Shown here one piece after another: positions 2,997 through 31,313 of a stretch of 64,000 nucleotides of DNA. How positions within the stretch are numbered: position 1 is the stretch's first letter; the number at the start of each line of letters is the position of its first letter. A program made the translations under genes and the position numbers. The stretch comes from Natronosalvus halobius (GTDB lineage: Archaea > Halobacteriota > Halobacteria > Halobacteriales > Natrialbaceae). The stretch is from contig NZ_CP099997.1 of the NCBI RefSeq assembly GCF_024138145.1, positions 2,418,001 through 2,482,000 on the forward strand. The letters run 5' to 3'. The notes under the pieces were generated by a model, which was not told where the DNA came from, ran no database searches, and saw only the letters and a program-made list of their open reading frames with translations.

Positions 2997-4057
2997 ACGC
3001 GCCGACCGTCACCCGTCGACAAGGACTGGCCATCGGCGCGGGGCTCCTCGGCGTGCTCGTGCTCGGCCTCGTCGTCGACGGCGGACGCCAGTTCGTCGGC
3101 GAGATTGCCGGCGTCATCAGCGTCTCCTATCTCGGCTCGGCGCTCCGGTTCACCGTCCCAATCGCCTTCGCCGCGATGGGCGGCATCTTCGCCGAGAAAT
3201 CCGGCGTCATCAACATCGGACTCGAGGGGCTGCTCATCGTCGGCGCGTTCAGTTCGATCGCGACCATGTACGCACTCGGTTCCGAGTCCGTCCCGATCGA
3301 GCCGAATCCGTGGCTCGCGCTCCTGGGGGCCATCTTCGCGAGCACGCTGATCGCCCTCCTGTTCGCCATCGTCTGCATCGAGTTCAAGGCCGACCAGATC
3401 ATTGCCGGCCTCGCCGTCTGGTTGATCGCGCTGGGCGCCGCCCCGTTCCTCAGCGTCGTCATCTGGAATCGCCGAAGCAGTCCGGGGAACGTCGGCACGT
3501 TCTCGTCCATCTCGATTCCGGGACTCTCCGCGCTGCCGGGGGTCGGCCAGATTTTCGAGGTTTCGCCGCAGGTGCTGCTCTTGCTCGTGGCCGTTCCCGT
3601 CTCGTGGTACCTCCTCAACCGGACCACGTTCGGGATGTGGCTCGAGGCCAGCGGCGAGGACCCCAAGTCGCTCGACACGGCTGGCGTCGACGTCCGAAAG
3701 GTGCGTTACGCTGGCGTCCTGCTCTCGGGCGTCTACTGTGGCATCGGTGGGGCCGGTTGGGCGCTCAACGTGGGTCAGTTCACGGGAACCGGCGACACCA
3801 TGATCGATGGCCGCGGTTGGATCGGCCTGACGGCGTACCTGATCGGGAACTACAACCCGATCGGCGCGTTCCTCGCGTCGTTCCTCTTCGCGGCCCTCGA
3901 CGCGCTCCAGATCGAACTTCAACAGATCGCCGCGTACGACATCTCCTCGACGCTCGTCGGAATTATCCCCTACGTCGCCGTCCTGGTCGTGCTCACGTTC
4001 GTCGGTCGCACCCGGATGCCGTCGGCCGCGGGCGAACACTACGACTCCGACGAGTAG
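2993..4057 (+). CDS. ABC transporter permease 2 (BMP/nucleoside type)
   Basis: A 354-residue multi-spanning permease of the same superfamily (YufQ-like). Characteristic segments are EKSGVINIGLEGLLIVGAF near residue 65 and IDGRGWIGLTAYLIGNYNP near residue 265, both typical of the second permease of BMP-dependent transporters. The start overlaps the preceding stop (ATGA 2993-2996). It is the last gene of the operon, followed by about 450 bp without a gene. The protein ends in a short acidic tail, as expected for a haloarchaeon. Confidence 0.92.
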   Translation: MNAPTVTRRQGLAIGAGLLGVLVLGLVVDGGRQFVGEIAGVISVSYLGSALRFTVPIAFAAMGGIFAEKSGVINIGLEGLLIVGAFSSIATMYALGSESVPIEPNPWLALLGAIFASTLIALLFAIVCIEFKADQIIAGLAVWLIALGAAPFLSVVIWNRRSSPGNVGTFSSISIPGLSALPGVGQIFEVSPQVLLLLVAVPVSWYLLNRTTFGMWLEASGEDPKSLDTAGVDVRKVRYAGVLLSGVYCGIGGAGWALNVGQFTGTGDTMIDGRGWIGLTAYLIGNYNPIGAFLASFLFAALDALQIELQQIAAYDISSTLVGIIPYVAVLVVLTFVGRTRMPSAAGEHYDSDE

Positions 4058-4512
4058 TCGTCCTCCAACTCGAGTTTCGCGTTTCGGTCAAAATCCGTCA
4101 CACAGGAACACCGGCTGCTCCGGAAACAGTCCGTGCTAGCGGTCGTCGATGTCGAACCCCCGTACCGACCGGGCAACGAATGCACTCACAGCTAACGGAC
4201 GATTACTGGTCGGTCGGGACGACCGCTCCGAGCGAGAACTCGGCCTCGAATACCGATAGACCGTCGCGTCGTCTCTCGGGTTTTGAACCGCGTGCGACTC
4301 AGTGGGAACGCGTGGCCGTCACGGCAACGCGCGGTGACGACCACCGCCTGAGGCCGTCGAGACTCTATGTCGATTCCCGACAGTTCTGATACCCGACACA
4401 CTTCGTCGGACCGATACGTGTTGATTCCCGACGGGTATACGACACCGGAAACAGGATATTTCCACCGAGAGCAACGTCTAGCGTAAAGTCGGGTGGGGAC
4501 CATCGTTCGGGT
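4058..4512. other. Intergenic region, 455 bp
   Basis: Between the ABC operon and the MscS-like gene. I see no codon-biased frame, RNA gene or repeat. The promoter of the downstream gene should lie in its right end, where composition is somewhat richer in A+T around 4435-4490, but no single TATA box stands out. Confidence 0.5.
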
Positions 4513-5340
4513 ATGGTTCACACACAACCCGCACAGGTAACGGTTCCCGACTGGCTCCAGGATCCAATCGCCGAACTGGTGACGTTTCTGCCGCGACTCG
4601 TTGGCGCACTGGTCATCCTGGCAATCGGCTGGATCATCGGCCGCCTCGCCGGCCGCGTCGTCATGCGAATCGCCGACGGCATCGAACTCGATCGCATGGT
4701 GCTCGAGACGCCGCTCGGTCGCATCCTCGGCGGAACAGAGCAAGCCGTCTCGAGAACATTCGGCAAACTGGCGAAGTGGTTCGTCTACGCCCTCGCGATC
4801 CTCGCGGCCGCGAACGCCCTCGCGATCGCACTCCTGTCGGAGTGGATCTCGACCGCAGTCTCCTACTTGCCGGCGTTCGTCGCGGGCCTGCTCGTCATCG
4901 TCTTCGGGTTCATCGTCGCTGACTTCGTCGGCGACATGATCGAGCGGACTCGAGCAGCAACCCAGACGGCCTACACGTCCTGGTTCGCCGACGGAGCCCG
5001 GGTGTTCCTCTACTTCACGGCCATCGTGATCGGCCTCGGGACGATGGGCATCGACGTCGGCATCCTGTTAGTCTTCGCGCGAGCGCTCGCGTGGGGCCTG
5101 GCCGCGGCCGTGGCAATCGGCGCCGGCGTCGCCTTCGGCTGGGGCGGCAAGGACTACGTCGCCGAGAACATCGACAGCTGGATGCGCCGGACGAACTCGA
5201 TGGCGCCGTCCGATGAGTCGTCCAATCAGCGGCGAGCGGGCGAGAGTGGCGCTGGAACGGGGAGCGGGTCCAGCCCTCGATCGGACCGCGAACACGGTTC
5301 CGAGCCGGGCCCCGGTCCTGGAGCGGATTTAGACGACTGA
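4513..5340 (+). CDS. MscS-like / conserved TM-helix membrane protein
   Basis: A 275-residue membrane protein with about five hydrophobic segments. The first (LPRLVGALVILAIGWIIGRL) is followed by repeats of the form P-x-F/L-V-x-G-L-L-V-I-V-F-G, characteristic of the conserved TM helix repeat found in small mechanosensitive-channel relatives. GAGVAFGWGGKDYVAENIDSW near residue 210 matches the end of TM3 and start of the beta domain in MscS, but the cytoplasmic vestibule is missing. It ends in a hydrophilic Ser/Gly/Glu-rich tail of about 55 residues. A role in osmotic adaptation is a family-based inference. Monocistronic. Confidence 0.8.
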   Translation: MVHTQPAQVTVPDWLQDPIAELVTFLPRLVGALVILAIGWIIGRLAGRVVMRIADGIELDRMVLETPLGRILGGTEQAVSRTFGKLAKWFVYALAILAAANALAIALLSEWISTAVSYLPAFVAGLLVIVFGFIVADFVGDMIERTRAATQTAYTSWFADGARVFLYFTAIVIGLGTMGIDVGILLVFARALAWGLAAAVAIGAGVAFGWGGKDYVAENIDSWMRRTNSMAPSDESSNQRRAGESGAGTGSGSSPRSDREHGSEPGPGPGADLDD

Positions 5341-5346
5341 TCCCGG

Positions 5347-5745
5347 TCACCGGACGGCCGGCCGCGCCGCTTTCGGTTTCGCCAGCTTCGAGAAGAGCGG
5401 TTTGACCGGGACGACGACGTACGTCTTCACCAATCGGCCGTTAACCGAGCGCCACTTCTCGACGCGCGCGACGGCATGAGCCTCGTACAGCGACTCGAGC
5501 GTCTCGATCACCGCATCGAACGCAGCGGTGTCGAACGTTTCGTGTGGAACGCGGTCAGTGACGACGGCGAGGCGTCGGCGCCGCGCGTAGACGTCGAGTC
5601 GACCCTCGAACGCGAACTCGGCGTCCTGGATCAGGTCGTGAAGCGCGCCCATCGTCGGTGCCGACGATTCCGTCGGCAGGGAGATGTACGCCTGGTATTC
5701 GTCCGGCCGCTCCGCGACGTACCGTTTCCACAGGCGTTTTAGCAC
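5347..5745 (-). CDS. Conserved hypothetical protein, 132 aa
   Basis: A basic, soluble protein with no signal peptide or membrane segment. The codon pattern (G/C at third positions) supports coding on the minus strand. I recognise no named domain. It has a predicted alpha/beta pattern with YARRRRLAVVTDRVPHETF in the middle and a basic tail (KPLFSKLAKPKAARPAVR). Its stop is 6 bp from the stop of the convergent MscS-like gene. The start ATG at 5745 is the first in frame. Confidence 0.7.
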   Translation of the reverse strand: MLKRLWKRYVAERPDEYQAYISLPTESSAPTMGALHDLIQDAEFAFEGRLDVYARRRRLAVVTDRVPHETFDTAAFDAVIETLESLYEAHAVARVEKWRSVNGRLVKTYVVVPVKPLFSKLAKPKAARPAVR

Positions 5746-5957
5746 GGTTCGATCACCTCGAGTCCAGCGTGGGACCCGGACCCGGGTTTACCCCCTTTCT
5801 TCGTCCGATCACGTACGCTCGCCATCCTTGGCCGTGACTTCTCGCCACCGGTAATACGTCCTTTGTTGTTCGTCGGCCTCGATGCCCTGAAAGTCAATTT
5901 TTCGTGACGATAGCTGATTCGAGAGACCTATGTGTAATTGCTCACTACCGCCACGCG

Positions 5958-6407
5958 ATGCCCACTCGTCTCCTCGAGTCGACGCGGTTCGTGACCGTCA
6001 CGTCGGCGGCGCTCGTCGCCGCCGGCGTCGCCATCAGCAGCGGTTTGACGCCCTCGGCCCGATCGCTCGCGGCGCTGTGTCTCGTCTCGGTCGGACTCGC
6101 CGGCGTCGCGAGCGAGGTGAGCGAGCGTCCGCTCGAGGGCGTTCATCGGGCAACAGTTCGATGGTGGACGGTCGCCTTCGTCGCCTTCCTCCCCTACGGA
6201 CTCGTGGCAGCGCCTTCGAGCGAGGGAGCGACGGCGGTTGCCGACTCCCTGTCCGCCACGATACCGCTCGTCGCATTCGAAGCCGGTGCCGGGAGCACGT
6301 TTCTGTGTGCAACTGCGGTAACGGCGCTCTACGCGATGGCGCGCTACGGCGTCCATCCAGGACGACCACGGCCCGAAGAGCGGATCCTGGTCGAGGGCGA
6401 CGACTGA
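5958..6407 (+). CDS. Hypothetical integral membrane protein, 149 aa
   Basis: Three to four hydrophobic stretches (VTVTSAALVAAGVAISSG, SLAALCLVSVGLAGVAS, WWTVAFVAFLPYGLVA, and a C-terminal FLCATAVTALYAMARYGV) separated by short charged loops. The frame stays open upstream to another ATG at 5904, but the stretch 5904-5957 lacks haloarchaeal codon bias, so ATG 5958 (MPTRLLES) is preferred. No known domain is recognised. Confidence 0.65.
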   Translation: MPTRLLESTRFVTVTSAALVAAGVAISSGLTPSARSLAALCLVSVGLAGVASEVSERPLEGVHRATVRWWTVAFVAFLPYGLVAAPSSEGATAVADSLSATIPLVAFEAGAGSTFLCATAVTALYAMARYGVHPGRPRPEERILVEGDD

Positions 6408-6506
6408 CTCGAATTGCCGTCGCGATCCGATAGTCGGGTAACGAATTCTCCCGAAGACGTCACGTACTCGCCACGCAGCTGGCAGAACGCTGTGGACGAA
6501 ACGGCT

Positions 6507-7706
6507 TCAGACGTGCTCCTCGACGAACGACTCGATCCGCGCCAGCGCCTCGCGTAGGTCCTCGAGGCCCGTCGCGTACGAAACCCGGAGGTGGCCCTCG
6601 CCGCCGACGCCGAAGACGTCACCGGGGACGACCGCGACGCCGCGCTCGCGGAGGAGTCGCTCGGCGAAGTCATTCGCGCTCCCGTCCCACCCGTTGGGCA
6701 CCTCGGGGAAGACGTAGAACGCCCCTTTCGCCTCGAAACACGGCATTCCGATCTCGCGAAACCGCGAGATGACGAACCGGCGCCGGCGGCCGTACTGGTC
6801 GACCATCGCCTCGACGTCGTTCGCACAGGAATCGAGCGCCTCGAGGGCCGCGTACTGGGCGGTCGTCGGCGCCGAGAGCATGCCGTACTGGTGGACGCGG
6901 TTCATCGCACCGATCGCCCCGCCGGGACCGAGCGCGTAGCCCAGTCGCAACCCGGTCATCGCGTGGGCCTTCGAGAACCCGTTGCAGACGATGGTGCGCT
7001 CGCGCATGCCCGGAAGCGTCGCGATGGACGCGTGGGTGGCGGTGCCGGGACTCGCGTCGGCGTCGCGCTCGTCGTAAGTCAACTCGGCGTAAATTTCGTC
7101 CGAGAGGACCGCGAGGTCGTGCTCGCGGGCGAACTCGGTAATGGGCTCGAGATCAGTCCGCGTCATCACGGCGCCGGTCGGGTTGTTCGGATAGCACATG
7201 ACGAGCAGGTCCGCAGCCTCGGCTCCGGCTGCCTCGAGCGCCTCGACTGTGAGCCGGAAGTCGTCCTCCTCCCGCGTCCGCACGGGGAGGACCTCCCCGC
7301 CTGCGAAGATCACGCCCGGTCCGTAGGAGATGTACGCCGGCTGAGCCACGGCGACGGTATCGCCGGCGTCGACGAACGCCCGAAAGGCCAGGTCGACGGC
7401 CTCGCTCGCGCCCGCAGTGACGAGAACCTCCGCGTCGGGATCGTACGCGAGGCCGAAGCGATCGGCAACGTGCCTCGAGATGGCCTCGCGAAGGTCGTAC
7501 ATGCCGCGGTTGGCCGTGTAGGAGGTCTTCCCCCGCTCGAGTGACTGGATGGCGGCGTCCCGCGCCGCCCACGGTGCGGAGAAGTCGGGTTCGCCGACGC
7601 CCAGGGAGATGACGTCGTCGCGCTCCTCGGCAATTTCGAAGAAGCGACGGATACCCGAAGGGCCGACCGCCTGGACGCGTTCGGCTGGCTCGAGGCTCCT
7701 GGTCAT
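6507..7706 (-). CDS. Class I/II PLP-dependent aminotransferase (aspartate aminotransferase family)
   Basis: A 399-residue fold-type I aminotransferase. It has the N-terminal ISLGVGEPDFSAP region, the NPNNPTG-type motif (MCYPNNPTGAVM), the cofactor-binding D-E-I-Y (LSDEIYAELTY) and the PLP-lysine motif CNGFSKAHAMTGLRLGY. Length and motifs fit archaeal aspartate or aromatic aminotransferases; substrate specificity cannot be read from the sequence. The start overlaps the stop of the Lrp regulator by 4 bp (ATGA, 7703-7706), a frequent haloarchaeal pairing that implies the regulator controls this gene. Confidence 0.93.
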   Translation of the reverse strand: MTRSLEPAERVQAVGPSGIRRFFEIAEERDDVISLGVGEPDFSAPWAARDAAIQSLERGKTSYTANRGMYDLREAISRHVADRFGLAYDPDAEVLVTAGASEAVDLAFRAFVDAGDTVAVAQPAYISYGPGVIFAGGEVLPVRTREEDDFRLTVEALEAAGAEAADLLVMCYPNNPTGAVMTRTDLEPITEFAREHDLAVLSDEIYAELTYDERDADASPGTATHASIATLPGMRERTIVCNGFSKAHAMTGLRLGYALGPGGAIGAMNRVHQYGMLSAPTTAQYAALEALDSCANDVEAMVDQYGRRRRFVISRFREIGMPCFEAKGAFYVFPEVPNGWDGSANDFAERLLRERGVAVVPGDVFGVGGEGHLRVSYATGLEDLREALARIESFVEEHV

Positions 7707-25441: not shown

Positions 25442-25621
25442 TCGGACGGAACCCTCACTGACGGAGCGAATTCTCATCGTATTAGTGACGAATAACGCCG
25501 GGATCGGGCTGTTTTCGGGGCTTCAGCCATCGAGAGTCGTCCGTTCGACGTGTCGGTTCGTAACAAAAAACCGGCAGTTGCAGGTCATCGTTATATCCAT
25601 CCGTTTGATGAACCGGTGATT

Positions 25622-25975
25622 ATGGGATCAAAACAACCCTACTCACGACGACGAATACTCGGTATTTCAGGCGTTGCGCTTTCGGCCGTCCTCGCCGGCT
25701 GTGGCGGACCGAGCGATGAGGAGGGTGCGCCGGAGAACGAGACCGGTATTGGCGACGACAACGAAACCGACACCGGCGTCGGCGACGACGAGGAAGACGA
25801 CGAAACCGATGTCGGCGACGACGAAGAAGAAGACAACGAAACCGATGTCGGTGACGACGAAGAAGAAGACAACGAAACCGATGTCGGTGACGACGAAGAA
25901 GAGGACAACGAAACTGACGTTGGTGACGACAACGAAACCGACGTCGGCGACGACAACGAAACCGAAGACGAATAA
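25622..25975 (+). CDS. Tat-exported lipoprotein with acidic 12-residue repeats
   Basis: 117 residues. Twin-arginine motif YSRRRILGISG, hydrophobic stretch and lipobox LAGC (Cys near residue 25). After GGPSDEEGAPENETG the rest is acidic repeats: the 12-residue unit DEEEDNETDVGD (36 bp) occurs three times almost identically, flanked by shorter DNETDVGD units. No folded domain. The mature protein would be a lipid-anchored acidic surface polypeptide. ATG 25622 is at the twin-arginine leader. Length probably varies between strains because the DNA repeats are near-identical. Confidence 0.78.
   Translation: MGSKQPYSRRRILGISGVALSAVLAGCGGPSDEEGAPENETGIGDDNETDTGVGDDEEDDETDVGDDEEEDNETDVGDDEEEDNETDVGDDEEEDNETDVGDDNETDVGDDNETEDE
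25800..25972 (+). repeat. 36-bp tandem repeat inside the acidic lipoprotein gene
   Basis: GACGACGAAGAAGAAGACAA-type units of 36 bp repeated about three times with one or two changes each, then shorter degenerate units. In frame with the gene. Confidence 0.85.
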
Positions 25976-27431: not shown

Positions 27432-28553
27432 GTGAGTCCCGTGACCGAGAAACGCGAATACAGAGACGACTACCCCGACAAGACGCTGTACATTCCGGGT
27501 CCGACCGAAGTGCGCGAGGACGTCATCGAGGCGATGTGCGAACCGATGTTCGGCCACCGGATGGACCGCATGACCGACCTCTACACGACCATCGTCGAGG
27601 ACACGAAGGCGTTCCTCGGCACCGATAACGACGTGATCGTCCTCACGGGGTCGGGAACCGAGTTCATGGAGAGTTCGATTCTGAACCTCGTCGACGAACA
27701 CGCCCTCGTCACGACCTGCGGCAGTTTCAGCGAGCGACAGGCCAACGTCGCCGAACGCCTCGGTAAGACCGTCGACACCCTCGAGTACGAGTGGGGCCAG
27801 GCGGTGAAACCCGAGGACGTCCGCGAGCGCCTCGAGGAGAGCGACACCGACTACGACGTCGTCACCTGCGTGATGAACGAGAGTTCGACCGGCGTCCGCA
27901 ATCCCGTCGAGGAGATTGGCGACGTCGTCGCCGAGTACCCGGATACCTCCTTCGTCGTCGACGCCGTCTCCGCACTGGGGGGTGATTACGTCGACATCGA
28001 CGCCCACGGCATCGACGTCATCTTCACCTCGGTCCAGAAGGCGTTCGCCATGCCGCCCGGGCTCGCCGTGTGCGTCGTCAGCGAGGACGCCTACGAGCGC
28101 GAGCTCGAGAGTGAGTCCGCCTCGTGGTACGGCGGCTTCCAGCGCACCATCGACTACTACGACCGGAAGGGGCAAACTCACTCCACACCGGCTATCCCGG
28201 TCATGCTCGCGTACCGAATACAGATGAAGCACATGCTCGAGGAGGGCCACGACGCCCGTGACCGACGTCACCGGGAGATGGCCAAGTACACCCAGGAGTG
28301 GGCCCGCGAGCACTTCGACATGTTTCCCGAAGAGGGCTACGAATCACAGACGGTGAGCTGTATCGAGAACACGCGTGGGATCGACGTCGCCGGCACCATC
28401 GAGGCCGTCTCCGAGGAGTACGACATGGTCTTCTCGAACGGCTACGGCTCGGCACTGGGCGAGAAGACGTTCCGCATCGGCCACATGGGCGAACACGACC
28501 TCGAGTCCATCGAAGCGCTGACCGACGCCATCGAGGATGTCGCCGGGTTGTGA
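27432..28553 (+). CDS. Class V PLP-dependent aminotransferase (serine-pyruvate/alanine-glyoxylate type)
   Basis: 373 residues. Start region TLYIPGPTEVREDV, GHR loop (MFGHRMDRM), VLTGSGTEFME (PLP phosphate), VVDAVSALGG (Asp binding the pyridine N) and PLP lysine 203 in FTSVQKAFAMPPG. Predicted serine-glyoxylate or alanine-glyoxylate transaminase, possibly linked to the haloarchaeal glycine/serine route. GTG 27432 or GTG 27441 is the start; no ATG is available before the domain. The last 68 bp are repeated at 28754-28821 with only silent differences. Confidence 0.92.
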   Translation: MSPVTEKREYRDDYPDKTLYIPGPTEVREDVIEAMCEPMFGHRMDRMTDLYTTIVEDTKAFLGTDNDVIVLTGSGTEFMESSILNLVDEHALVTTCGSFSERQANVAERLGKTVDTLEYEWGQAVKPEDVRERLEESDTDYDVVTCVMNESSTGVRNPVEEIGDVVAEYPDTSFVVDAVSALGGDYVDIDAHGIDVIFTSVQKAFAMPPGLAVCVVSEDAYERELESESASWYGGFQRTIDYYDRKGQTHSTPAIPVMLAYRIQMKHMLEEGHDARDRRHREMAKYTQEWAREHFDMFPEEGYESQTVSCIENTRGIDVAGTIEAVSEEYDMVFSNGYGSALGEKTFRIGHMGEHDLESIEALTDAIEDVAGL

Positions 28554-28574
28554 GGCGACCCTCGTAGCGTTTTC

Positions 28575-28748
28575 ACCGCGAATGAACGGAAGTGAGTGAG
28601 CGGACCGACGAACGACCGAAGCGCGGCGCGAAGTGCCGCGCTCCGAGGGAGTGAGGAGTGTTTTTGATCCAGCTTTTGCCGAGTGACGGCGAACCGGGCG
28701 GTAGCGAAGCTACCGACGGTGAGCCAGAACGCAGCGCAAAAGGTGGGT
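28575..28748 (+). repeat. Dispersed palindromic element, copy B (complete)
   Basis: The element consists of an A+G-rich head (GAACGGAAGTGAGTGAGCGG), a hairpin AGCGCGGC-GCGAAGT-GCCGCGCT (28619-28641), GTTTTTGATCCAGCTTTTGC (28659-28678), a second hairpin GGTAGC-GAA-GCTACC (28700-28714), and the end GCAGCGCAAAAGGT (28731-28744). AGCTTTTGC and GCGCAAAAGG are inverted relative to each other and bound the second hairpin. No reading frame. Confidence 0.75.
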
Positions 28749-28753
28749 CTACG

Positions 28754-28821
28754 TGGGCGAACACGACCTCGAGTCGATCGAAGCCCTGACCGACGCGATT
28801 GAGGACGTCGCCGGGTTGTAA
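28754..28821 (+). pseudogene. Second 3' end of the class V aminotransferase gene
   Basis: 68 bp aligned without gaps to 28486-28553, the last 22 codons and stop of the gene upstream. The six differences are all at third codon positions and all silent (stop TAA versus TGA). No start or upstream part. It is a fragment of a homologous allele rather than of a decaying copy. Confidence 0.9.
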
Positions 28822-28863: not shown

Positions 28864-29139
28864 CTACTGGGTGTAGGAACTCTCGCCGACGGTCTCGACG
28901 TACTCGCCGCGACCAGTCGACATCGAGTCGTCGAACTCGGTGACGTGGACCCGGACGCGCTTTTCTACGTGCCCGGGGCTCACTCCCTCGACGTACAACA
29001 CGGTGTCACCGATACGGGCGATACCGACGTCGTCAGCGTCGAACTCCGAGAGGAAGACGTCCACCTCGGTTCCCGGGGTGAGCGTCGGCCTGGTCGTCCG
29101 GAAGTGCCACCCGCTGAGGAACTTCTCCAGGACGCTCAT
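28864..29139 (-). CDS. Small TRAM-like/OB-fold protein
   Basis: 91 residues. The region PGTEVDVFLSEFDADDVGIARIGDTVLYVEGVSPGHVEKRVRVHVTEF has the TRAM pattern (G-x-G/D-x-A-x-x-G-D-x-V-x-V-x-G-x-x-P-G-x-x-V), predicting a beta-barrel that may bind RNA. The start overlaps the NhaC stop by ATGA (29136-29139), so they are translationally coupled. Function unknown. Confidence 0.72.
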   Translation of the reverse strand: MSVLEKFLSGWHFRTTRPTLTPGTEVDVFLSEFDADDVGIARIGDTVLYVEGVSPGHVEKRVRVHVTEFDDSMSTGRGEYVETVGESSYTQ

Positions 29140-30704
29140 ACGCGGGCCACCTCCTCCGATTCGCGGTCGATAACGTACTCACGGCCGAAGCCGGTGATTG
29201 CCGCGAGGACAAACACCGCCACCAGCAGCCAGCCGTGGAAGACGAACGGGACGACGTCAATCGGATTGACGATCAGCGACTCGTCGAACCAGTCGTACGT
29301 CCCCGGCAGCCCCTGCATCTCGGAGTAGCCTACCAGGACCCCGCCGGACCACGGGAAGATGTAACCCAGCGCGGCCGTCTGGGCGTCCAGGATGTTCGCG
29401 CGCCGGTAGCCGTTGATGTTGAAGCGCTCGCCGACCTTCGAGATGTAGGGACCGATCGCGACCTCGGCGGCGGTGTTGATCGTGATCGTCGCGTTGATCA
29501 ACGCGGCGGATCCGACCATCGTCAGTTCGGCGTTGCGGACGTTCGTCGCGAGCGTGTCGAGCGACCAGTCGAGTATCGCCTGGAACGCACCGCCACGGAT
29601 CATGATCTGGGCAGCGCCGATGATGAACAGCACGAGGATCGACAGCGTGAAGAAGCCGGCGGCGCCCTCGACGAGGCTGCCGGTCACGGCGGGATCCTCG
29701 GCGATCTCGACGATCGGCAACACCGCGAGTTGGTCCGCTGCCGGTGCGTCAGCGGGTGCCTCGAAGTTGACGATGGCGCTCGGCGCCGTGAGGCCAAACA
29801 GGAGATTCGAAGCCACAGCGAAGACGATCCCCCAGGAGATGGCCTCGACGATGTGTCGCCCGGCGACCGCCGTCGCGATGACCACGCCCATCGAGAGCAG
29901 GTGAACGAGCCCGATTGGAGTGCTCTCCTCGACGAAGAGCTGTCTGGCCTCGGCCCCGTTGGTGATCTCGGCACCGGGGAGCACGGAGCTCGCAACGACG
30001 TATCCGACGAACGCGAGCACCGCGGCGATGATCGCGTACTTGAATCGGGACGCGACGACGCCGCCGATGTCAGCGTCCTGCGTGACGGCGCTGACGATCG
30101 TCGTGTCGCTGACCGGCGCGAGGTTGTCGCCGAAAATCGCGCCCGACAAAATCGCACCGAACAGCAACACCGGGTTCGTGCCCAGAAGCACGCCGGCCGG
30201 GAAAAACAGGGCGACGAAGGCGATCGTCGTCCCGTAACCCGTCCCGATGCCGGTCGCGAGGAGCGCCGCCAGCACGAACGTGATCGCCGGGAACAGCGCC
30301 GCGCCAACGCCGGTGAGGTCGGCCATCCAGACCAGCCCCTCGACGAACCCGCCGGTCTGCATCGTCTGAGCGAACATCCCTGCCCAGATCCAGGCGACGA
30401 TCGCCGTCACCGCGACCGGCTGGGTCATCCCCTCGAAGATGGTGTTCGCGTACCCCTTCCAGGAGCCCTTCACGAAGAACATCCCGAGAATGAGTCCCAG
30501 GAGGATCCCGAGCACGAGGCCCTCTTCGCTCGAGATGCGCAACAATGCGGTCTGAACGATCGCCCAGAGGACGAAGAACGCGATTGGCAACGCACTCATT
30601 CCTCGACCGCCGTAGAACGTGATCGCCGGTTCCTCGTCGGTCGGATCGACGAACTGTTCGCTGGCTATATCCTCGTCGTCTGGTGGGTCGTCCCTGCGTG
30701 ACAT
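29136..30704 (-). CDS. Na+/H+ antiporter, NhaC family
   Basis: 522 residues with about 12 membrane segments. Features include GYGTTIAFVALFFPAG, GAILSGAIFGDNLAPVSDTTIVSA (the conserved ion-path segment with D-N-x-A-P-x-S-D-T-T) and NATITINTAAEVAIGPYISKV near the end. The first 35 residues are acidic and cytoplasmic. Exports Na+ in exchange for H+, or acts on a related substrate; some NhaC-family proteins exchange organic acids. A TATA-like TTATATTG lies at about 30738-30747 on the minus strand. First gene of a two-gene unit. Confidence 0.9.
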   Translation of the reverse strand: MSRRDDPPDDEDIASEQFVDPTDEEPAITFYGGRGMSALPIAFFVLWAIVQTALLRISSEEGLVLGILLGLILGMFFVKGSWKGYANTIFEGMTQPVAVTAIVAWIWAGMFAQTMQTGGFVEGLVWMADLTGVGAALFPAITFVLAALLATGIGTGYGTTIAFVALFFPAGVLLGTNPVLLFGAILSGAIFGDNLAPVSDTTIVSAVTQDADIGGVVASRFKYAIIAAVLAFVGYVVASSVLPGAEITNGAEARQLFVEESTPIGLVHLLSMGVVIATAVAGRHIVEAISWGIVFAVASNLLFGLTAPSAIVNFEAPADAPAADQLAVLPIVEIAEDPAVTGSLVEGAAGFFTLSILVLFIIGAAQIMIRGGAFQAILDWSLDTLATNVRNAELTMVGSAALINATITINTAAEVAIGPYISKVGERFNINGYRRANILDAQTAALGYIFPWSGGVLVGYSEMQGLPGTYDWFDESLIVNPIDVVPFVFHGWLLVAVFVLAAITGFGREYVIDRESEEVARV

Positions 30705-30747: not shown

Positions 30748-31087
30748 ACGGAGTCGTCAGTCGGTTTTGCTGGTACGGCTACACGAATCGTGAGTAACGT
30801 CTCCTGAATTCACAGCGGGACCTTCGCAACGGTGGGTTCGCATCACTTGGACGAACGCGGCCTCGAGTCGCTCTGAACATTGTAACTGCCTCGATCGCCG
30901 GATGAAACGGAGTTGCCGACCGAATTTCGGTCAGCCCTGCACGTGTGCTGTAGTGGCCGGGAGCACGACTCGAGCAACGCGAGAGACGTGCGACTTGGGA
31001 GAAGGCAGGCGATTCCCTGAATTGAACCGCGAGCGAATTCGTAGGCGAGCGGGCCAACGACTGACGTGGAGTGACGCAGCGCGTTAT

Positions 31088-31154
31088 GGAACGGAAAGAG
31101 GAGGCGTCACGGAACGGAAAGAGGAGGCGTCACGGAACGGAAAGAGGAGTGTTC
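31088..31154 (+). repeat. 23-bp tandem repeat, nearly three copies
   Basis: GGAACGGAAAGAGGAGGCGT plus CAC at 31088-31110 is repeated exactly at 31111-31133 and partly at 31134-31149. Purine-rich on the plus strand, non-coding. Confidence 0.92.
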
Positions 31155-31189: not shown

Positions 31190-31313
31190 GTCCGTGAGCG
31201 GAGTGAACGGAACCGTTTTCCGTATTTTTTGGTCGAGCTTTTGCCGAGTGTCAACGCGACGTGGAGCGCCACTGGCGCTCCCGTCGCGATACGAACGCAG
31301 CGCAAAAGGTCGT
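31190..31313 (-). repeat. Dispersed palindromic element, copy C
   Basis: Head GTCCGTGAGCGGAGTGAACGG, then TTTTTTGGTCGAGCTTTTGCCGAG (31225-31248), a hairpin GAGCGCCA-C-TGGCGCTC (31264-31280), and the end GAACGCAGCGCAAAAGGT (31293-31310). Same order of parts as copy B with different hairpin sequence. It ends 5 bp from the aIF1A stop codon, so relative to that gene it lies in the 3' region in reverse orientation. Confidence 0.75.

What the first reader, a model, noticed from the sequence alone, without database searches (positions are those of the whole stretch)
28486..28821. Allelic-replacement scar: aminotransferase 3' end present twice with only silent differences
The last 68 bp of the class V aminotransferase gene (28486-28553) recur at 28754-28821. 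All six differences are at third codon positions and keep every residue; even the stop differs (TGA/TAA). Random decay of a duplicate would hit all codon positions, so both ends evolved as functional genes. The simplest reading is that a homologous allele, with its own 3' flank including dispersed element copy B, recombined into the locus and left the old 3' end behind.
Basis: partly seen in the sequence, partly recalled or inferred. Interest (0 to 1): 0.68.

Follow-up and report, generated by a model that had tools for sequence, protein, structure and literature searches.

The report
Recombination scar at an aminotransferase gene end
In this salt-loving archaeon the last 68 bases of an aminotransferase gene occur twice, most likely because DNA exchange spliced two versions of the gene end together; nine other genomes of the family carry a second copy of the same gene end, so the kind of event is known but unusually frequent at this one place.

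Summary
The duplication is real: 28486-28553 and 28754-28821 are 62/68 identical and encode the same residues. One detail is wrong: five differences are at third positions; TGA/TAA differs at the second. Five more genomes, each from a different genus, carry the same layout: gene end, spacer, ~190-bp dispersed hairpin element, then a gene-end copy starting at the same base behind nearly the same joint. Four further genomes have longer second gene ends with other cargo and other joints. In all, 10 of 123 Natrialbaceae genomes carry a second 3' end; among 1064 long-ORF ends tested, one other locus did. Best reading: recombination fused two alleles of a variable interval between the conserved aminotransferase and eIF1A genes, stranding one allele's 3' end. 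The shared joint probably arose once, then spread by homologous exchange or was inherited with many losses. Which end is native here is unsettled. This kind of scar (homology-anchored displacement leaving orphan 3' ends) is known from toxin loci.

The parts
27432..28553 (+). class V aminotransferase gene, complete, with the left copy of the 3' end
   Evidence: ORF of 373 aa; Pfam Aminotran_5 E=3.5e-21; orthologues in 59 of 61 relatives
28486..28553 (+). left copy of the 68-bp gene end, stop TGA
28554..28574 (+). spacer between stop codon and element; similar to the spacer in G034, whose first 11 bases match the native flank of Haloterrigena salina
28575..28749 (+). dispersed element copy B (ACCGCGAATGAACGG...GCAAAAGGTGGGTC)
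   Evidence: 85 related copies in 1.45 Mb of fetched DNA, none in the reversed control
28666..28749 (+). long hairpin of the element (GATCCAGCTTTTGC...GCAAAAGGTGGGTC)
   Evidence: RNA fold -52.3 kcal/mol, z=-4.66; no Rfam match
28750..28753 (+). TACG at the joint: with the preceding C it reads CTA (reverse TAG), a possible stop-codon remnant of a former convergent neighbour, or diverged CACA of the gene
   Evidence: shared with G034 and G143, one base off in G107; CTA lies at the usual distance of stop codons from this element
28754..28821 (+). right copy of the 68-bp gene end, stop TAA, orphan
28864..29139 (-). DUF7513/TRAM small protein; also follows the gene directly in G002 and G007
29136..30704 (-). 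NhaC-family Na+/H+ antiporter gene
   Evidence: Pfam Na_H_antiporter E=4.8e-36
31229..31310 (+). dispersed element copy A (hairpin core), abutting the eIF1A stop codon
31315..31602 (-). eIF1A gene, conserved right border of the variable interval

Best explanation
The window carries a recombination scar made of two alleles of one locus. One allele is aminotransferase (at least its 3' part), spacer and hairpin element; the other is an aminotransferase 3' end followed by DUF7513-nhaC. Incoming DNA paired by homology on one side and was joined, on the other side, inside the 3' part of the resident gene instead of beyond it, so 68 bases of gene end are present twice, each with the silent differences of a working allele (shown: layout, silent differences, synteny; inferred: order of events). 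The locus is prone to this: the interval between the conserved aminotransferase and eIF1A genes holds different convergent cargo in different species, and 10 of 123 family genomes keep an orphan second gene end, with at least three distinct joints. The joint seen here, at the foot of the hairpin, is shared with five other genera, so it probably formed once and then either spread as an insertion allele by ordinary homologous recombination (the gene on the left and the 68-base end on the right serving as homology arms) or was inherited and often lost by recombination between the two ends.
For: Silent-only differences with an intact stop. Insert-free relatives G002/G007 with the right copy's downstream genes. 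Both component arrangements occur in the genus. Same layout and nearly the same joint in G034, G107, G143, G025, G008, at six separate places on the gene tree. Other cargo with other joints and decayed second ends in Natrialba and in G134/G135. Second ends rare at other genes: one other locus among 1064 long-ORF ends. Variable content between aminotransferase and eIF1A. Mosaic between the two ends in Natrialba, consistent with exchange between ends or alleles. Excess of window-specific changes in 28044-28553 (weak).
Against: No strain of the same species is held, so the empty or donor allele has not been seen. The donor tract is not significant in a region-wide scan (p=0.10). The element at the six sites is no more alike than random copies, so spread between genera is not shown directly. 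A shared joint is also what site-specific integration would give.
Confidence: 0.7

Rival explanations
1. Site-specific integration: the gene's 3' end is the attachment site of a small integrative element that brings its own copy of the end (attL/attR), as for elements that integrate at tRNA or other gene ends; the 200-bp insert would be a non-autonomous or decayed element.
For: Same start of the right copy and nearly the same joint in six genera; silent differences with a restored gene are what attachment sites in gene ends show (established knowledge).
Against: The ~200-bp insert has no room for a recombinase gene. Second ends at the same gene begin at three different positions (68-bp, 128-bp and 143-151-bp types). 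No viral, phage or plasmid record carries the gene end as an attachment site; plasmid matches are whole genes. In G034 the left end and its flank look native.
Confidence: 0.12
2. Ancient single fusion kept by inheritance, with concerted evolution: gene conversion from the left copy keeps the right copy gene-like, and most lineages lost the insert by recombination between the two ends. No recent replacement in this species.
For: Right copies resemble their own genome's gene in G143, G107 and G008; mosaic ends in Natrialba; element similarity at these sites equals the family background.
Against: Needs many losses: the six carriers fall in six places on the tree, and G034's 97%-identical relative lacks the copy. 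In the window the left-right divergence (6/68) is as large as that between species, yet silent on both sides.
Confidence: 0.14
3. Tandem duplication of the whole gene followed by deletion of the 5' part of the second copy.
For: Would also leave a gene end that had evolved as a working gene.
Against: No locus examined shows two complete tandem copies; the second complete copy in G035 lies on another contig. Insert-free relatives have the right copy's flank directly after their only gene.
Confidence: 0.04

Closest known systems
Displaced 3' ends by homology-facilitated illegitimate recombination (type VI effector/immunity arrays in Vibrio, PMC5361080; Rhs and CDI orphan C-termini as cited there)
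   Same: Conserved stretch of a gene acts as anchor, new DNA is joined next to it, and the 3' end of the displaced allele remains downstream; repeated at one locus.
   Different: Here a housekeeping enzyme in an archaeon; the cargo in the window is a non-coding hairpin element; the protein is unchanged; the same joint occurs in six genera.
Integrative elements with attachment sites in gene 3' ends (general knowledge)
   Same: Duplicated gene end with silent differences bracketing an insert.
   Different: No integrase in the insert, three different start points of the second end at the same gene, insert of only about 200 bp.
Exchange of variable intervals between conserved flanking genes by homologous recombination (general knowledge)
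   Same: Different cargo between aminotransferase and eIF1A in different species.
   Different: Normally leaves no partial gene copies; here the 3' end of the border gene is stranded.

Membership tests
Homology-facilitated illegitimate recombination scar | Duplicated stretch belongs to a gene that offers a long homology anchor | tested here: met
   Gene is 88-97% identical at DNA level among near relatives
Homology-facilitated illegitimate recombination scar | Non-homologous or microhomologous joint on the other side | tested here: inconclusive
   Joint lies at the hairpin foot followed by TACG|TGGGCG; at most 2 of 4 bases of TACG match the gene, and the donor sequence beyond the joint is unknown
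Homology-facilitated illegitimate recombination scar | Empty site in relatives | tested here: met
   G002, G007
Homology-facilitated illegitimate recombination scar | Displaced end decays with time | tested here: met
   G134/G135 second ends have frameshift and replacements
Site-specific integrative element | Recombinase gene in the element | tested here: not met
   Insert of 200 bp; ORFs overlapping it are short or antisense and none is a recombinase-sized gene within it
Site-specific integrative element | Fixed core for all insertions at the gene | tested here: not met
   Second ends start at three different positions
Site-specific integrative element | Excision or circular form | not testable with these tools
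   Needs reads or PCR

The most novel reading that the evidence does not exclude
The hairpin element plus its captured 68-base gene end is a minimal mobile unit that needs no enzyme of its own: the gene end is a homology arm through which the host's recombination machinery inserts it into the same gene of new hosts, restoring the gene each time. That would be a homing unit without nuclease or integrase, spread over six genera.
Probability: 0.12. Interest if true: 0.7.

Novelty: new member of a known kind. Interest (0 to 1): 0.42.

Why it matters
It gives a readable record of how cargo enters a variable interval next to a conserved archaeal gene: each event strands an old gene end, so replacements can be read and partly ordered. 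It shows that displacement of 3' ends, described for bacterial toxin loci, also occurs at a housekeeping gene in haloarchaea and recurs at one locus (10 of 123 genomes). The shared joint at a hairpin foot is a clear test case for spread by homologous recombination versus inheritance with loss.

Tried and rejected
A pattern scan of 392 genomes of the order for the joint returned mostly unrelated coding matches and was not used for counts; a strict element pattern in the genus was too narrow. Idea that every dispersed element is bracketed by a duplicated gene end: rejected; among 85 copies only the aminotransferase loci show strong bracketing repeats (E below 1e-10), one other copy (L222) has a weak match at 8e-9. 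Idea that element similarity proves recent horizontal spread: not supported, elements at these sites are as alike as random copies. My first thought that the left spacer is homologous to the right flank was dropped: the spacer resembles that of G034 and the native flank of H. salina. Viral and phage carriers of the gene end: none; plasmids only whole genes or an element. The donor-tract scan is suggestive only. Relative of G107 (L080) could not be compared by script because the search pattern missed its end; its end is printed and shows a single end with a different flank. A tree of the 68-bp ends alone was not built: too short.

Full report
OBSERVATION. The window is from a haloarchaeon of the Natrialbaceae. 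The genus is inferred to be Natronosalvus because genus member G005 has the contig length of N. hydrolyticus. The gene at 27432-28553 is a class V aminotransferase. Its last 68 bases recur at 28754-28821 with 62 of 68 identical. All differences keep the residues. Five are at third positions; the stop codons TGA and TAA differ at the second position, so 'all six at third positions' is slightly wrong. The silent-only argument must be restricted to changes on the right copy, because the left copy is under selection. Against G002 and G007 three changes (GCC, ATT, TAA) are clearly on the right copy and two are ambiguous. With a silent fraction of 0.24-0.31 the probability of silent-only is 0.013-0.03 for three and 0.001-0.003 for five. 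This is good but not overwhelming evidence that the right copy was a working gene end until recently.

INSERT-FREE RELATIVES. G002 (97% protein identity) and G007 (95%) have one gene end, no insert, and directly afterwards the DUF7513 and nhaC genes that follow the window's right copy. G003, also of the genus, has aminotransferase, a copy of the dispersed element, then eIF1A. Both arrangements needed for a fusion therefore exist in the genus.

NOT UNIQUE. A check of all fetched loci for a second gene end turned up the same layout in other genera. G034 (main chromosome of 3,889,038 bp, the size I recall for Haloterrigena turkmenica), G107, G143, G025 and G008 all have gene end, spacer, an element of about 190 bp and a gene-end copy that starts at the same base. 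The joint GGGTCTACGTGGGCGAACACG is identical in the window, G034 and G143, one base off in G107, and altered in G025 and G008. The copy is cut short in G143. On a tree of 116 aminotransferase genes built without the last columns, the six carriers need six changes of state. G034's nearest relative, Haloterrigena salina, 97% identical, has no such copy.

OTHER CARGO AT THE SAME GENE. In two Natrialba species a second gene end of about 128 bp lies 2.2 kb downstream, beyond predicted secreted proteins. In G134 and G135 a 143-151-bp second end lies beyond a subtilase gene; in G134 it sits directly before DUF7513-nhaC, where the window's right copy also sits. These two ends have frameshifts and replacements, which is what a stranded end looks like after some time. 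Ten of 123 family genomes with a detectable gene end thus carry a second one (nine, plus G143), with at least three distinct joints. As a control, 1064 distinct ends of long ORFs in the fetched DNA were tested for a copy within 3 kb downstream; apart from aminotransferase carriers one locus (L088) was positive. The fetched set is enriched for carriers and contains spurious ORFs, so the fair comparison is 10 of 123 against roughly one in several hundred or fewer. Across the fetched loci the interval between aminotransferase and eIF1A holds subtilase, nhaC, both, neither, or other genes.

MECHANISM. These facts fit recombination anchored by homology in a conserved border gene and completed by a joint that falls inside the same gene's 3' part, so that one end is stranded. 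Bacterial work calls this homology-facilitated illegitimate recombination, and it has been proposed for stranded 3' ends of type VI effectors and Rhs proteins (PMC5361080). Either it spreads as an insertion allele by ordinary homologous recombination, or it is old and often lost. Right copies resembling their own genome's gene (G143, G107, G008) fit both, because a crossover inside the 68 bases or later gene conversion gives the recipient's sequence. The two Natrialba species show a mosaic between their two ends (three cross-linked sites followed by four parallel sites), consistent with such exchange.

POLARITY. In the window the right copy is contiguous with the flank of G002 and G007, which favours right = native. 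Window-specific changes are enriched in 28044-28553 (27 of 48 informative sites against 11 of 43 upstream, p=0.005 after choosing the boundary), as expected if the gene's 3' half was imported with the element, but a scan of the whole aligned region finds a stronger cluster elsewhere and is not significant (p=0.10). In G034 the opposite is suggested: the left end and the first 11 bases after its stop match H. salina.

ELEMENT. Copy B folds into a long hairpin (28666-28749, z=-4.66) with no Rfam match. In 79 copies with both core ends, 58 have the stop codon of a convergent open frame of at least 90 codons near the right foot, 53 of them 2-8 nt after GCAAAAGGT, against 12% at random positions and 8 of 79 at the left edge of the core. 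In the window CTA stands at the usual distance, so it may be the stop codon of the neighbour from which the element was cut. This is inference; homology of TACG to CACA in the gene is the alternative. Elements at the six aminotransferase sites are not more alike than copies elsewhere, although they are more alike than fourfold sites of the gene, so the element family itself is conserved and its similarity cannot date the spread.

ALTERNATIVES. Site-specific integration is the serious rival because of the shared joint and the silent differences, but the insert has no recombinase, second ends at this gene begin at three different positions, and no viral or phage sequence carries the gene end. 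Tandem duplication with deletion is unsupported. An assembly error is very unlikely given the same structure in five independent genomes.

VERDICT. Observation confirmed with one correction; interpretation partly supported and extended. A known kind of scar, at a new kind of gene, unusually recurrent. Interest 0.42.

Noticed in passing
window 28575-28749 and 31229-31310; copies in L039, L040, L042, L128-L136, L185-L247: A dispersed hairpin element of Natrialbaceae sits with its right foot 2-8 nt from the stop codon of a convergent open frame (53 of 79 copies; 12% at random positions). It has no Rfam match and could be a shared terminator-like 3' module or an element that targets gene ends.
   Followed up: partly
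L252 (G134) 3284-5000 and L253 (G135) 4058-6530: Second, decayed aminotransferase 3' ends beyond a subtilase gene: independent displacement events at the same gene.
   Followed up: partly
L050 and L058, 5120-7440: Natrialba species carry a 2.2-kb cargo between two aminotransferase ends, and the two species show a mosaic between left and right ends.
   Followed up: partly
L250 (G025), about 60 bases downstream of the gene stop: The spacer holds a third partial gene-end-like stretch (GAGGACATCGCCGGATTG), hinting at more than one round of exchange.
   Followed up: no
window 25550-25975: Predicted lipoprotein with an acidic repeat (DNETDVGDDEEE); this stretch is the most divergent from G002 in the neighbourhood.
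   Followed up: no
window 31071-31140: Three tandem copies of GGAACGGAAAGAGGAGGCGTCAC-like units inside the 5' part of element A, absent from G002 and G007.
   Followed up: no
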